A DNA stretch of 64,000 nt from Nitrospira sp. (lineage in GTDB: Bacteria; Nitrospirota; Nitrospiria; Nitrospirales; Nitrospiraceae). The notes below the pieces were generated by a model. That model ran no database searches and was not told the DNA's origin. It saw nothing but the letters and a program-made list of their open reading frames with translations. The stretch lies in NCBI GenBank assembly GCA_030444405.1, contig JARFPM010000012.1, positions 1-64,000 on the forward strand, written 5' to 3'. A program made the translations under genes and the position numbers. This document shows, piece after piece, positions 5,506 to 33,574 of this stretch. Each line of letters begins with the position of its first letter. Positions within the stretch are counted from its first letter, which is position 1.

Positions 5506-6087
5506 ATGCTCAGGGAACTCCTCTCGACAAACCGTTTCTCTTCACAGACCCCGTTTCTATGGACGACCGGGCTTCTGCTCCTCCTACTCGCGACGACGGG
5601 CTGTCCCCGCATCGTCTCCCTGGACTACCAGCCGGCCAATCCTCTGAAAGGGCAGGGAACTGTCGGCACGGCGCCCTTTCGCTATCAACCGTCGGATGAG
5701 CATCGTGTGCGTCCGCGTCAGGTCGAAACCGACCCCGCATCACGGAACAAGTTGTACCTCGCGCGGGAAATCGGCATCTTTTTCGAAGACGCGCTCCGCA
5801 AAGAACTGGACCGGTCGGGGTACCGGACGAAGGAGCCGAGCGACCACCTCGTGTCCGGCTCCATCACACGATTTTATCTTGACTGGAAGAGCGGACAGGA
5901 ACGATCGTTCGAACTGGTGGTCGACTATACAGTCCGCTCGGGCGAGCGCACAGTGTTTACCTGGCCGTGCACGTCGGTGCAGAGGGGGCCGAACATGCTG
6001 GTGCAGGACGGAATCTTGATTCGCGCCGGGATCGCCGATTGTATGCAGCGTTTCATTGCAGCTGCGCAGGACGCACGCGCCTTCTGA
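5506..6087 (+). CDS. Hypothetical exported protein/lipoprotein
   Basis: Signal peptide with ..LLATTGC lipobox; good coding length. Confidence 0.6.
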   Translation: MLRELLSTNRFSSQTPFLWTTGLLLLLLATTGCPRIVSLDYQPANPLKGQGTVGTAPFRYQPSDEHRVRPRQVETDPASRNKLYLAREIGIFFEDALRKELDRSGYRTKEPSDHLVSGSITRFYLDWKSGQERSFELVVDYTVRSGERTVFTWPCTSVQRGPNMLVQDGILIRAGIADCMQRFIAAAQDARAF

Positions 6088-6472: not shown

Positions 6473-7183
6473 ATGATTCAGTTATTCGAGAAGTTGCGGG
6501 CACTCACATTGACAATACCTATCATGGCAGCGGCTCTTGTGGGAGGGATGATTGTGAGCGACGCCCTGCCTGTCCTGGCCACTGACGTTGAACAGCAGCA
6601 GGTCGTGGGCAAGGCAAAGATGACGCTTGAAAGTTTCCTCGCGGATCCCAGCATGGGACCGGCGCTCCGTGACTTGAAGCAGGAAACCAAAGCCCTCTTC
6701 ATCGTGCCGCAGTTTATGCGCGGTGCCTTCATCTTCGGCGGGGCCGGTGGTCACGGCGTGTTGATCGTGCGTGACCAGGCAACGAAAAAATGGTCCGAAC
6801 CGGCTTTTTACAACATCGGCTCTGCCAGCTTCGGCCTGATGGCCGGTGCCGACGTATCGGAGATCATCTTTGTCGTGCGGACCCAGAAAGGACTGGAAGG
6901 GTTCTATCGTAACGATTTTAAGCTGGGACTTGACGCCAGCATGGCGATAGGCCCGGTCGGTGAAGGAGGGTCCGTGCAAGGGATCACCGCAGACCTCGTC
7001 GGCTATGCGAAGAAGAAAGGGATCTATGCCGGATTCTCAGCTGAAGGCGCCATCGTCACGGTATCCAATGATTCCAACGCGGCATACTATGGCAAATCCG
7101 TGCGGCCAACGGACATCGTCGTCAAGGGCTCAGTCAGTAATCCAAAATCCGCCGACCTCCGCAACGCTGCCGCCAAGTTCTGA
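6473..7183 (+). CDS. SYLF (YSC84-like) lipid-binding domain exported protein
   Basis: Signal peptide; APQF..GAFIFGGAGGHGVLIVRD and SFGLMAGADVSEIIFVV typical of SYLF; upstream aaggagg. Confidence 0.8.
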   Translation: MIQLFEKLRALTLTIPIMAAALVGGMIVSDALPVLATDVEQQQVVGKAKMTLESFLADPSMGPALRDLKQETKALFIVPQFMRGAFIFGGAGGHGVLIVRDQATKKWSEPAFYNIGSASFGLMAGADVSEIIFVVRTQKGLEGFYRNDFKLGLDASMAIGPVGEGGSVQGITADLVGYAKKKGIYAGFSAEGAIVTVSNDSNAAYYGKSVRPTDIVVKGSVSNPKSADLRNAAAKF

Positions 7184-7304: not shown

Positions 7305-7365
7305 CATGCACGCTACGGTCGCAAGCAGCAGCGGTTGGTCGAGCCCGCCATGCAGCATTTCAAAG
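7305..7365 (+). repeat. Leader repeat copy A, also present upstream of the 11.2-kb sulfatase
   Basis: catgcacgctacggtcgcaagcagcagcggttggtcgagcccgccatgcag vs catgcactctagggtcgcaagcagcagcgatgggtcgagcgcgcaatgcag at 11173. Confidence 0.7.
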
Positions 7366-7397
7366 AAATGCAGCGCGTCAAAGAAAGGAAAGAGGCA

Positions 7398-7515
7398 ATG
7401 AGAATGAGACTGCGCACCGGAGCGGCGCTCGCGCCGGGGACGCACAGGATTCAGTAGGAGTTCATCCCTGATGAGGCCAGGCCCGGTACGGAAGGTCACA
7501 GTCGAGCAGAGGTAA
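7398..7515 (+). pseudogene. Remnant of a sulfatase gene (leader plus C-terminal scraps)
   Basis: ATG MRMRLRTGA-LAPGTHRIQ*EFIPDEARPGT... then KVTVEQR*; C-terminal pieces resemble the sulfatases at 11.2 and 16.2 kb, with the middle missing. Confidence 0.55.
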
Positions 7516-10319: not shown

Positions 10320-10345
10320 CCACAGACATCGAGGTGCACACCTGA

Positions 10346-10414
10346 GGAAGAGTTCTATCCTAACGATTTTAAGCTGGGACTTGACGCCAGCATGGCGATA
10401 GGCCCGGTCGGTGA
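10346..10414 (+). repeat. Displaced 69-bp fragment of the SYLF gene (copy of 6895..6963)
   Basis: Near-identical by eye with 2 mismatches (ggaagagttctatcctaacgattttaagctgggacttgacgccagcatggcgataggcccggtcggtga). Confidence 0.9.
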
Positions 10415-10651
10415 GGAAGGCGGCGATTCAATCCACGCTTCAACTTGATCTATTACCATACCCGGCGTGGTCGGTGGGGCATAAATCCGCGTGCGGGGCA
10501 CAATGGCGAGAAATTCGTGGATGCACGGCCATGGTATGGCCCATGGCGCCCGTCCCTCGTCCAATCGAAGGATGTGCGCATATGCCGCCTCATGCCAGGG
10601 AGAGTCTTCGCGATGGGAGTGCACGAGAACACGACCATTGACGGCGATCAT
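10355..10651 (-). pseudogene. VapC/PIN-domain toxin, 3' end replaced by a SYLF-gene fragment
   Basis: MIAVNGRVLVHSHREDSPWHEAAYAHIL..APWAIPWPCIHEFLAIV is PIN-like; C-terminus reads antisense through the SYLF fragment; expected VDTN reads VNGR. Confidence 0.7.
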
Positions 10652-10893
10652 CCGCCTCGGCCTTGGTAGCTCAGTTCTCGAATCTGCTCCCAGGAAGCCC
10701 CCGCGAGATGCGGCTGCAAGCCGTGGCCCTTGAACGTGGCCTTGCGGAAGTGATAACCTTTCCTCCGCTTGCGTTCTGAGACAATCCAGCGAAGCCCTTG
10801 CTCCACCAGAGCCCTCAACGTTGTCCGCTCTCGATGAGCCAACTTACGGGCCTGCTCGAATAGGCCATCAGAAATATGGATGGTTGTCTTCAT
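10648..10893 (-). CDS. VapB-like antitoxin
   Basis: MKTTIHISDGLFEQARKLAHRERTTLRALVEQGLRWIV; 4-bp overlap with the downstream PIN gene. Confidence 0.7.
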   Translation of the reverse strand: MKTTIHISDGLFEQARKLAHRERTTLRALVEQGLRWIVSERKRRKGYHFRKATFKGHGLQPHLAGASWEQIRELSYQGRGG

Positions 10894-11172
10894 AATGGCC
10901 AGCCATATCATCGGATACGGCAAGCCGTCAACCACAGCACGAAACATTACCCGTAGAAGGATCTTGATGAAACAAATGCGAATCCCGTCGCTCGCGGTAT
11001 GGTCACTTGGGTCTATCGCACGTGAAGACGCTCGTGCCCCGCAATCCCGAATGGAGGGCAAATGGTGCAAGTGGTAATGGATGAACCGAACGTCGAGACG
11101 ATTCTCCCAGTGATCCTCGGGTTTGGTGCGGACGAAATGCTCGCTTCACGCGACGATTCAGAACATCCGTGC

Positions 11173-11232
11173 CATGCACTCTAGGGTCGCAAGCAGCAGC
11201 GATGGGTCGAGCGCGCAATGCAGTATTTCTCA
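11173..11232 (+). repeat. Leader repeat copy B upstream of sulfatase 1
   Basis: See 7305..7365. Confidence 0.7.
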
Positions 11233-11247
11233 AGAGAGGAGAGAGGC

Positions 11248-13692
11248 ATGAGGCTGTACAGAGGAGCGGTGGCAATCGCGCTCATGGTGATTGGATGCTC
11301 TGCCGTGACTGTGATTGGCGGCGGCTCTGCCGAGGCTGCCGACAAGGTCGACCGTACGGTGCTGCCGATTCAGGAGCCGAAACGCCCGACTTATTCTGAG
11401 CTCGATGTCCGCAACGTGACGGCGCCACCGCATTTCGAGGTCAGGGCCCCTGAGGGTGCACCGAACGTCCTGGTGGTCATCGTCGACGATCTCGGCTTTG
11501 CCGGCACCAGCACCTTCGGCGGGCCGGTCGGCACACCCACGTTCGATCGCATTGCGAGGGAAGGGCTGTATTACAACAATTTCCACACGACCGCCGTGTG
11601 CTCCCCGACGCGCGCCGCGCTCAAGAGCGGACGCAACCATCACGTCAACAACATGGGCTCGATCATCGAGACCGGCACGGCGTTCCCTGGGAACACCGGC
11701 CAGATCCCGAACGACGTCGCCCCGCTTCCTGAGATGCTCCGCCTGAACGGCTACAGCACCGGCGCCTTCGGCAAGTGGCACGAACTCGCCGCCTGGGAGG
11801 CGAGTGTCTCGGGCCCGTTCGACCGTTGGCCGACCCATCAGGGTTTCGACAAGTTCTATGGTTTTCTCGGCGGCGAGACCAACCAGTGGGCGCCGTTCGT
11901 CTATGACGGAACCCATGCGGTCGAGCTGCCCGCCGATCCCAACTACCACTTCTTGACCGACATGACCGATCAGGCGGTGGCCTGGATCAAGTACCAGAAG
12001 GCGCTCACTCCCCAGAAACCGTTCTTCGTCTATTACGCGCCGGGCGCCACGCACGCGCCACATCATGTGCCCAAGGAATGGATCGGGCGCTGGAAGGGCA
12101 AATTCGATCAGGGCTGGGATAGGATGCGCCAAGAGATCCTGGCGCGCCAGATCGAACGCGGCATTGTGCCCAAGGGAACGACCCTCGCGCCCAAGCCTCA
12201 AGCGATTCCGGACTGGAACAGCCTGAGTGAGGACGAGAAGAAGCTGTTCGCCCGCCAGGCCGAGGTGTTCGCCGGATTCGTCGAGATGACCGACCATGAG
12301 ATCGGCCGGCTCATCGAAGGCATCGGGGAGACCGGACAGCTCGACAACACCCTCATTCTTCTGATCTACGGCGACAACGGCACCAGCGCCGAGGGCGGTC
12401 GGAACGGCATGTTCAGCGAGATGACGTACTTCAACGGGGTCCAGGAGCAGGTGTCGGACATGCTGAAACACCTCGACCAGTGGGGCGGACCCGAAACCTA
12501 CCCGCATATGGCGGCCGGCTGGGCGGTGGCGTTCGACACACCCTATCAATGGACCAAACAGATGGGGTCCGACTTCGGCGGGACCAAGGTCGGCATGGCC
12601 GTCCGCTGGCCAAGGGGCATCAAGTCGAAGGGCGAACTGCGTACCCAGTTCAGCCATGTGATCGACGTCGCGCCGACCATCCTCGATGCCGCCGGTCTGC
12701 CCGAACCCAAGACGGTCAACGGCACGCCGCAGCGCCCGATGGACGGGGTGAGCATGGCCTATTCCTTCGACAACGGCAAGGCGAAGGAGCGCCATACCAC
12801 GCAGTACTTCGAGATGTTCGGCAACCGCGCGATCTACCAGGACGGCTGGCTCGCCAGGACCATTCACAGGGCGCCGTGGGAGCCCAAGCCTCGGCGGCCG
12901 CTGGCCGAGGACATCTGGGAGCTGTACGACACGCAGAGCGACTTCAGCCTGGCGCACGACCTCTCGGCACAGCATCCGAAAAAGCTCGAGGAGATGAAGG
13001 CCCTCTTCATGCGCGAGGCCGAGAAGAACTATGCGCTGCCCATCGACGACCGGCTGTTCGAGCGCATCATTCCGGCCTTGGTCAACCGCCCCGACCTGAT
13101 GGCGGGTCGCACCTCGCTGACGCTGGCCGACGGCATGACCGGCATGACGGAAAACATCTTTCTCAACATCAAGAACCGGTCCAACACCATCACCGCCGAG
13201 GTGAACATGCCCGAGCGGACCACGGCCCATGGAATCGTCATCGCGCAGGGCGGTCGCTTCGGCGGCTGGGCATTGTACGTGAAGGACGGTGTGCCGGCCT
13301 ATGATTACAACTTCTTGGGCATGCAACGGTTTACGGTTTCCTCCAAGGAGACGCTCAAGCCCGGCAGGTCCACGATCCGCTTCGAGTTCGCCTACGACGG
13401 CGGCGGCTTGGGCAAGGGCGGCACGGGGACACTGTACGTCAACGACCGCAAGGTGGGCGAGGGGCGCATCGAACGGACCCAGCCCATGATCTTCTCGGCC
13501 GACGAGACCGCCGATGTCGGGATAGACCTGGCCTCGCCGGTGGTCGAGACAATCGGATCAGAAGGCAAGTCGCGATTCACCGGCAAGGTCCACAGGGTCA
13601 CGATTGAGGTGCAGCCGATGAAGGCTGCCGACGCACATGAGGAAGAGACCGCCCGAACCGAAGTTGCGCACAAGAAAATACTCTCGGACTAA
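11248..13692 (+). CDS. Arylsulfatase (formylglycine type), exported
   Basis: Signal peptide; NVLVVIVDDLGFAGTSTFGG; CSPTRAALKSGRNHH FGly motif. The ORF track starts at 11218, but SD plus ATG at 11248 fits better. Confidence 0.9.
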   Translation: MRLYRGAVAIALMVIGCSAVTVIGGGSAEAADKVDRTVLPIQEPKRPTYSELDVRNVTAPPHFEVRAPEGAPNVLVVIVDDLGFAGTSTFGGPVGTPTFDRIAREGLYYNNFHTTAVCSPTRAALKSGRNHHVNNMGSIIETGTAFPGNTGQIPNDVAPLPEMLRLNGYSTGAFGKWHELAAWEASVSGPFDRWPTHQGFDKFYGFLGGETNQWAPFVYDGTHAVELPADPNYHFLTDMTDQAVAWIKYQKALTPQKPFFVYYAPGATHAPHHVPKEWIGRWKGKFDQGWDRMRQEILARQIERGIVPKGTTLAPKPQAIPDWNSLSEDEKKLFARQAEVFAGFVEMTDHEIGRLIEGIGETGQLDNTLILLIYGDNGTSAEGGRNGMFSEMTYFNGVQEQVSDMLKHLDQWGGPETYPHMAAGWAVAFDTPYQWTKQMGSDFGGTKVGMAVRWPRGIKSKGELRTQFSHVIDVAPTILDAAGLPEPKTVNGTPQRPMDGVSMAYSFDNGKAKERHTTQYFEMFGNRAIYQDGWLARTIHRAPWEPKPRRPLAEDIWELYDTQSDFSLAHDLSAQHPKKLEEMKALFMREAEKNYALPIDDRLFERIIPALVNRPDLMAGRTSLTLADGMTGMTENIFLNIKNRSNTITAEVNMPERTTAHGIVIAQGGRFGGWALYVKDGVPAYDYNFLGMQRFTVSSKETLKPGRSTIRFEFAYDGGGLGKGGTGTLYVNDRKVGEGRIERTQPMIFSADETADVGIDLASPVVETIGSEGKSRFTGKVHRVTIEVQPMKAADAHEEETARTEVAHKKILSD

Positions 13693-31673: not shown

Positions 31674-31829
31674 GAGCCGGTGGCGGGCCGCTTATGGAAG
31701 CGCCGGCCGGTGGCCACAACAGCATTCGCCAGAAGGAACCGTGGGTATGATTATGAGATGAAGCAGCCCGCTACAACAGAGGGCTCAGTCCGGCTTTACG
31801 CCGGGGCTGGAGAAGGAGGATTATCGTTC

Positions 31830-32396
31830 ATGGAGACCCGACGACAATCAGTATGCTCTCTCATCCTATTCATGCTCGGCCTGAGCGCCTGCACACCGGT
31901 TAACGTGAAGATCGACCATGATCCCACGGCGGATTTCACCACCTTCACAACATTTACTTTCGTGGGACTGGCTGAGGCCGAAAAAGGTAGGATCCACGAC
32001 AATTCGTTGACGCACAAGCGGATTGAATCAGCCGTCGCACGGGAGCTGACCGGGAAAGGGCTTCGGCAAGTCGATCTGAGTCAACAACCCGACCTGCTGG
32101 TCTACTATTGGTTCAGCGCAAAAGAGAAGCAGCAAATTCAGAGCACCGGACCGACCGCCGGTGCCTATGGCTGGCGCGGCAGATATGGGTGGGGTGCGGG
32201 ATACGGGGGCACTGTCACCACCTATGAGTATACGGAAGGAACCTTGATTCTTGATCTGGTCGAACCAACCAAGAAGGAACTGGTCTGGCGCGCGACGATG
32301 GTCGGCACGTTGCACGAGACACCGAAAGACAATATCGAGCTCGGGAATAAGGCCATCGCGAAGGCGTTTGAAAGCTATCCACCGAAACGGAAATAG
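31830..32396 (+). CDS. DUF4136-like lipoprotein
   Basis: Lipobox LGLSAC; VKIDHDPTADFTTFTTFTFV; GTLILDLVEPTKKELVWRATMVGTL. Confidence 0.8.
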   Translation: METRRQSVCSLILFMLGLSACTPVNVKIDHDPTADFTTFTTFTFVGLAEAEKGRIHDNSLTHKRIESAVARELTGKGLRQVDLSQQPDLLVYYWFSAKEKQQIQSTGPTAGAYGWRGRYGWGAGYGGTVTTYEYTEGTLILDLVEPTKKELVWRATMVGTLHETPKDNIELGNKAIAKAFESYPPKRK

Positions 32397-32407
32397 CCGC
32401 TGCCATG
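32162..32407 (+). repeat. 246-bp direct repeat, copy 1 (3' end of the DUF4136 gene)
   Basis: Near-identical to 33222..33467 when aligned by eye, only a handful of mismatches. Confidence 0.95.
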
Positions 32408-32463
32408 GACGGATTTGAGTACTATTTGAGTACTAACGGCGATCAGCCTGCCCTCGGCAATAA

Positions 32464-32913
32464 TCAGGAGCGTCGGTGTGGCTTGCGGCTGAGTGGGTTC
32501 TCCCAACGAAGCCGCTTGAACCGGGCAAAGTCATTGTCGCATGAGACGAGTGTCGCGCCATAACTCATCGCGAGCGCAGCCAGGTGCGCATCGGTCACCA
32601 GATTGGCGGCAGTGCCAGCTTCGCTTAGTAAGGAACGCAGAATCTCCCAGTGTTCGTCTCTTTCCGGCAGGAGCCTTGTGCTGTCAAGAGACAGCCATGC
32701 GTGAACTTTGCCGATGGCCGTATCAGGATCCAGCGGTCGTGGAAAGATGTCGTGGTTGGTGGAGATGCGTAAGAATCCAAGCACCACAACCCACGGTAGC
32801 CCGAGAGGTTCGTCGCCATTGAGGGCCTGCTCCCACCAGGCCTGTATGGGACGGTGGTGAGGAGCGTCTTCGTTGATGGCATAGAGAAGGATGTTAAGAT
32901 CGACCAGTTTCAC
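32464..32913 (-). CDS. VapC/PIN-domain toxin, apparently intact
   Basis: MKLVDLNILLYAINEDAPHHRPIQAWWEQAL..LVTDAHLAALAMSYGATLVSCDNDFARF. Confidence 0.85.
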   Translation of the reverse strand: MKLVDLNILLYAINEDAPHHRPIQAWWEQALNGDEPLGLPWVVVLGFLRISTNHDIFPRPLDPDTAIGKVHAWLSLDSTRLLPERDEHWEILRSLLSEAGTAANLVTDAHLAALAMSYGATLVSCDNDFARFKRLRWENPLSRKPHRRS

Positions 32914-33176
32914 TTGCGACCGAGCACTTTTCTGACGATCTCTTCGTCCTCGAGTGCCGCGGCTAATGCAAGCGCTTTGTCGAGTTTGATCCTGGGCGGG
33001 CCCATTGCGTAGCTCCGCTCCCGATGGCGTCGGTTGCGCGCGGATAATTTGGGCGACGCACGTATGCCTGCGCGCAGAGTCCGATCAAGCAGGCGGGTCA
33101 GCGGAGTATCCTCCTTACGTGCCTGTTCCTTGAGCGTACGGAGGAGCTCGTCGTCGATGCGGATCGTCGTGCGCAT
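32910..33176 (-). CDS. VapB-like ribbon-helix-helix antitoxin
   Basis: MRTTIRIDDELLRTLKEQARKEDTPLTRLLDRTLRAGI; 4-bp overlap with vapC. Confidence 0.85.
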   Translation of the reverse strand: MRTTIRIDDELLRTLKEQARKEDTPLTRLLDRTLRAGIRASPKLSARNRRHRERSYAMGPPRIKLDKALALAAALEDEEIVRKVLGRK

Positions 33177-33221
33177 GGAGGCATCATAGCATCACCTCCG
33201 ATGATGTCAAGGCATCATTTT

Positions 33222-33467
33222 TGCCTATGGCTGGCGCGGCAGATATGGGTGGGGTGCGGGATACGGGGGCATTGTCACCACCTATGAGTATACGGAAGGA
33301 ACCTTGATTCTTGATCTGGTCGAACCAACCAAGAAGGAACTGGTCTGGCGCGCGACGATGGTCGGCACGTTGCACGAGACACCGAAGGACAATATCGAGC
33401 TCGGGAATAAGGCCATCGCGAAGGCGTTTGAAAGCTATCCACCCAAAAGGAATTAGCCGCTGCCATG
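33222..33467 (+). repeat. 246-bp direct repeat, copy 2 (orphan DUF4136 3' end)
   Basis: tgcctatggctggcgcggcagatatgggtggggtgcgggatacgggggc.. through tgccatg, as at 32162. Confidence 0.95.
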
Positions 33468-33574
33468 CATGAACAATGACGGGGGATATTCTGTAATTCC
33501 GAGCCCTCGGTTAACCATCTGAAGTCTCGGCAGAATGTCCCCATCATCGCCACGTGCGCTGATAGGGAGGCGAC

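What the first reader, a model, noticed from the sequence alone, without database searches (positions are those of the whole stretch)
10346..10651. VapC toxin whose 3' end is replaced by a 69-bp fragment of a SYLF gene located 3.4 kb upstream
Seen: 10346-10414 matches 6895-6963 with two mismatches. The minus-strand PIN ORF runs antisense into it and stops there, giving a chimeric C-terminus. The PIN N-terminus reads VNGRVLV where VapC proteins normally have VDTNxLV, so the metal-binding Asp also looks lost, while the antitoxin remains. Suggests illegitimate recombination or gap repair using the SYLF gene as template at a TA locus.
Basis: partly seen in the sequence, partly recalled or inferred. 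Interest (0 to 1): 0.7.

Follow-up and report, generated by a model that had tools for sequence, protein, structure and literature searches.

The report
Broken vapC beside a copied SYLF fragment
A bacterial toxin gene (vapC) has lost its second half and some of its active-site residues, and the gap is filled by a short stray copy of a neighbouring gene; this is an ordinary dead gene, but the scar is well preserved and probably records one short copy-and-paste repair error.

Summary
Window 10346-10420 is a 95% identical, same-orientation copy of 6895-6969, inside the SYLF gene at 6473-7183, and it is unique to this genome. VapC homology in the minus-strand PIN ORF stops at codon 77 of about 144, at 10421, exactly where the SYLF copy begins. 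The last 21 residues of the ORF are antisense SYLF. The first catalytic Asp is invariant in all 79 homologues and is lost here, as are the distal Asp108 and Asp127. VapB (81 aa) is intact. This is a vapC pseudogene with a retained antitoxin.

The fragment is bounded by an 8-bp direct repeat, TGAGGAAG, at 10343-10350 and 10412-10419 (chance about 2e-4). The left copy overlaps SYLF by GGAAG and the right by TGA, as expected if repair copied 61 bp of SYLF and switched back. The copies have diverged: where the SYLF gene is changed, the fragment keeps the base seen in eight relatives, so it is not an assembly echo.

A rival is not excluded: the fragment may be a relic of an older SYLF-sulfatase duplication. 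Relatives carry tandem SYLF genes, a second direct repeat (7305/11173) lies nearby, and relatives have another gene relic beside the same MscS gene. Either way it is an ordinary pseudogene scar.

The parts
6473..7183 (+). Intact SYLF-domain gene (Pfam Ysc84), source of the copied patch
   Evidence: Pfam PF04366 E=1.9e-29; colinear with 81-85% identical genes in G002, G012, G018, G031
6895..6969 (+). Donor copy of repeat D1 inside the SYLF gene
7305..7361 (+). Repeat D2, copy 1: relic of the leader found before the sulfatase gene
   Evidence: 88% identical to 11173-11229; weaker homology continues about 50 bp further
10343..10350 (+). Left copy of the 8-bp direct repeat TGAGGAAG bounding the patch
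   Evidence: chance 1.8e-4
10346..10420 (+). Ectopic SYLF fragment (D1 copy 2); 61 bp (10351-10411) lie between the two 8-bp repeats
10412..10419 (+). Right copy of TGAGGAAG
10355..10651 (-). vapC pseudogene: codons 1-77 VapC (10421-10651), then 21 antisense-SYLF codons and a stop
10648..10893 (-). Intact vapB antitoxin gene, 81 aa, overlapping the vapC start by 4 bp
   Evidence: Pfam VapB_antitoxin E=4e-6; 69% identical to G010 VapB
10894..10944 (-). Upstream (promoter-side) end of the vapBC module, conserved with G010
11173..11229 (+). Repeat D2, copy 2, leader of the sulfatase gene at 11218-13692

Best explanation
This is a dead vapC with an intact-looking vapB. The 3' half of vapC (about 67 codons) was lost by a deletion that joined codon 77 to the region just after the MscS gene. 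At that join, repair or replication copied 61 bp of the SYLF gene 3.4 kb upstream. Proposed steps: the strand ending in ...TGAGGAAG paired with GGAAG in SYLF (6895-6899), was extended to ...GGTGA (6963), and returned to TGA of the original TGAGGAAG. This left the patch bounded by two TGAGGAAG copies. Shown: the sequences, the junctions, the 8-bp repeat, and the loss of active-site residues. Inferred: the strand-switching mechanism and the order of events.
For: VapC homology ends at the patch boundary. The 8-bp direct repeat at an offset equal to the patch length has a chance of 1.8e-4 per insertion. The fragment shares base states found only in this genome's SYLF gene, and keeps the A of all eight relatives' copies where that gene now has G, so it was copied within this lineage and both copies have since mutated. 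D1 (2-4 differences) is less diverged than the extended D2 repeat (19/103; Fisher p = 0.006-0.012, from a hand count on the alignment). vapC departs at 5 of 25 near-invariant sites, against at most 1 in 79 homologues. Asp108 and Asp127, conserved in 68 and 69 of 69 homologues, are lost. No close copy of the missing C-terminus exists elsewhere in the genome. No Ku gene was found, which disfavours classical end joining.
Against: The patch (61-69 bp) does not account for the roughly 201 bp of vapC lost. The vapBC module has no orthologue at this site in the genus, so the pre-insertion state is unknown. A second direct repeat (D2) in the same order suggests an older duplication of a SYLF-sulfatase unit, which would also give a SYLF relic here. 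The 8-bp repeat was noticed after looking, so its p-value is somewhat optimistic.
Confidence: 0.58

Rival explanations
1. The fragment is the last remnant of a second SYLF gene. An ancestral SYLF-sulfatase unit was duplicated around the MscS gene; the first copy lost its sulfatase (leaving repeat D2 at 7305) and the second lost nearly all of its SYLF gene, with vapBC inserted between them.
For: Two direct repeats in the same order, SYLF then sulfatase leader, at both places and only in this genome. Relatives G012, G018 and G031 have two or more SYLF genes within a few kb, in G012 and G018 upstream of a sulfatase on the same strand. G115 and G002 carry a short relic of another neighbouring gene just after the same MscS gene, so partly erased genes are normal at this spot.
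Against: It does not explain the 8-bp repeat exactly bounding the fragment. D1 is less diverged than D2. No SYLF sequence remains between vapBC and D2 or left of the fragment. The fragment groups with this genome's SYLF, not with the second paralogue of relatives, so gene conversion would be needed.
Confidence: 0.32
2. Assembly or chimera artefact in a metagenome-derived contig: the join of MscS, SYLF fragment and vapC is not real.
For: The genome is a 170-contig draft, and the copies share a 54-bp exact run, enough to confuse short-k assembly.
Against: The donor copy sits in an intact SYLF gene colinear with relatives, so swapping arms at the repeat would break that gene. The copies differ, and the fragment carries the ancestral base where the donor is derived; a chimeric read would carry an exact copy.
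Confidence: 0.06
3. A functional shortened VapC with a new C-terminus.
For: The reading frame stays open for 98 codons and the start overlaps vapB normally.
Against: Asp5, Asp108 and Asp127 are gone, other invariant sites are changed, and the tail is antisense to another gene.
Confidence: 0.04

Closest known systems
vapBC type II toxin-antitoxin systems (NCBIfam TIGR00028; solved relative VapC43 of entry 7vwo)
   Same: Operon layout with a 4-bp overlap, VapB fold family, and 77 codons of a clear VapC PIN domain; an intact relative matches VapC43 over its whole length
   Different: The toxin lacks three of the four conserved acidic residues and its last 67 codons
Template switching at microhomology (MMBIR/FoSTeS-type events, PMC2621351)
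   Same: Short copied patch from a nearby locus with few-base microhomology at both edges
   Different: Single 61-bp patch; mechanism inferred from one scar, with no genetics
Short-patch double illegitimate recombination described in Acinetobacter baylyi (from memory; the paper is not in the library)
   Same: A short intragenomic segment placed at extended microhomologies
   Different: As recalled, that process replaces bases; here there is a net insertion with an 8-bp repeat beside a large deletion. Not tested here.

Membership tests
vapBC toxin-antitoxin locus (functional) | Conserved acidic active-site residues of the PIN toxin | tested here: not met
   Asp5 changed; Asp108 and Asp127 absent; only Glu46 remains
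vapBC toxin-antitoxin locus (functional) | Full-length PIN domain of about 144 aa | tested here: not met
   77 codons of VapC only; most homologues 143-147 aa
vapBC toxin-antitoxin locus (functional) | Intact VapB antitoxin upstream, overlapping vapC | tested here: met
   81 aa, Pfam VapB_antitoxin over its cut-off
Microhomology-templated insertion | Patch copied from another locus in the same genome | tested here: met
   Donor at 6895-6969, lineage-specific bases shared
Microhomology-templated insertion | Microhomology or short direct repeat at both edges | tested here: met
   TGAGGAAG on both sides, sharing GGAAG and TGA with the donor
Microhomology-templated insertion | Known empty site without the patch | not testable with these tools
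   No genus member held has vapBC at this site
SYLF/Ysc84 gene | Complete SYLF domain | tested here: not met
   Fragment covers about 25 of 236 codons

The most novel reading that the evidence does not exclude
Arrival and decay of vapBC modules in this lineage may go together with short copying errors at the repair fork. Both vapBC modules in this window are bordered by duplicated pieces of nearby genes: a 61-bp SYLF patch here, and a 246-bp flanking duplication at 32162/33222.
Probability: 0.12. Interest if true: 0.5.

Novelty: new member of a known kind. Interest (0 to 1): 0.27.

Why it matters
Dead toxins with surviving antitoxins are common. The value here is a readable scar showing how a short piece of one gene can be copied into another, and a caution that the 98-aa ORF should not be annotated as an active toxin.

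Tried and rejected
An intact vapC at the orthologous site: the only close vapC in the genus (G010) lies at another locus. A relocated vapC C-terminus: no close match, only other VapC-like genes at 35-39% identity. SYLF sequence continuing beyond the fragment on either side, or between vapBC and D2: none above shuffles. The fragment as a remnant of the relatives' second SYLF paralogue: it shares this genome's own SYLF bases instead. Classical end joining: no Ku gene found. dN/dS on the vapC remnant: synonymous sites nearly saturated, uninformative. Clusters of changed codons in vapC as further copied patches: no 12-16-base match elsewhere in the window. Papers on vapBC insertion and on short-patch illegitimate recombination: nothing directly applicable in the library.

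Full report
What was checked. The direct repeat is real: 6895-6969 and 10346-10420 share 71 of 75 bases, E = 7e-27 genome-wide with no third copy. In a self-comparison of the 84-kb contig, only one longer repeat above 75% identity was found, the 246-bp pair at 32 kb. The window lies in an 84-kb contig of a 3.46-Mb, 170-contig draft genome, about 99.6% complete. Handles in the genus are unnamed; the best named vapBC relative is Nitrospira sp. CR1.3, so the host is probably a Nitrospira relative (inference).

The vapC remnant. The minus-strand ORF 10355-10651 gives 98 aa. Its first 77 residues align without gaps to intact VapC proteins, 73% identical to CR1.3 and 68% to genus member G010. Most of 80 homologues are 143-147 aa long. 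DNA homology to the vapBC modules of CR1.3 and G010 starts at 10421 and runs to 10931 and 10944; those two modules match each other up to the vapC stop codon. The window therefore keeps the module from its promoter side to codon 77 and then stops. Of 25 positions at least 95% conserved in 79 homologues, the window has lost five (D5, N7, Y11, T52, A66); no homologue has lost more than one. The homologues were found through short exact peptides, which inflates conservation around PWPCIHEF, but none of the five sites lies there. D108 and D127 are conserved in 68 and 69 of 69 full-length homologues and are absent here. Pfam PIN does not hit the remnant, while intact relatives hit it with E about 1e-10. 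The solved relative VapC43 aligns over its full length with the intact protein. VapB is complete.

The SYLF patch. The source gene at 6473-7183 is intact and colinear with genes 81-85% identical in G002, G012, G018 and G031. Within the fragment, bases unique to this genome's SYLF gene are shared. At 10351 the fragment has A, as in all eight relatives' copies, where the source gene has G; at 10360 the fragment alone is changed. Copying happened in this lineage, and each copy then mutated, which argues against a chimeric read. The fragment is bounded by TGAGGAAG at 10343-10350 and 10412-10419. In two million simulated random insertions of 69 bp, a junction repeat of 8 bp or more occurred in 1.8e-4. 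The left repeat shares GGAAG with the donor and the right shares TGA, which gives a direct template-switch reading. No Ku gene was found in the genome.

The neighbourhood. In G115, G002, G012 and G018 the MscS gene is followed by the lipoprotein-like gene of 5506-6087, or a relic of it; in the window MscS is followed by the SYLF fragment, and that gene lies 4 kb away next to the intact SYLF gene. G012, G018 and G031 carry tandem SYLF genes, in G012 and G018 upstream of a sulfatase on the same strand. The window also has a second direct repeat, 7305-7361 and 11173-11229, with homology trailing on for about 50 bp, so a sulfatase leader relic sits behind the intact SYLF gene. This keeps alive the rival that the whole SYLF-sulfatase unit was once duplicated and then eroded. 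Against it are the 8-bp boundaries, the lower divergence of D1 than D2 (Fisher p about 0.01), and the absence of any other SYLF remnant near the fragment.

Verdict. The locus is a vapC pseudogene with a retained antitoxin and a short ectopic gene patch at the break. It is a well-resolved example of known processes, not a new kind of element.

Noticed in passing
32162-33467: A second, intact vapBC module (32451-33217, minus strand) sits between 246-bp direct repeats 98% identical (32162-32407 and 33222-33467), the 3' end of the gene at 31680-32396. G012 and G031 have the empty site and carry the module (80-81% identical) elsewhere, so this looks like a recent module insertion with a 246-bp flanking duplication.
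   Followed up: partly
33468-33555: 88 bp absent from the empty site in G012 and G031, with GGGGGATATTCTG and CAGAATGTCCCC near its two ends, perhaps a remnant of a small repeat element.
   Followed up: no
7305-7440: Relic of a sulfatase leader and signal-peptide start behind the SYLF gene, matching 11173-11300.
   Followed up: partly
L148 14216-14264; L149 5538-5587: About 28 codons of the lipoprotein-like gene (window 5506-6087) remain directly after MscS in G115 and G002, a gene relic at the same site as the SYLF fragment.
   Followed up: partly
L025 10405-12114; L021 13079-16176: Tandem SYLF genes within 1-2.5 kb in G031, G018 and G012, a locally expanding family.
   Followed up: partly
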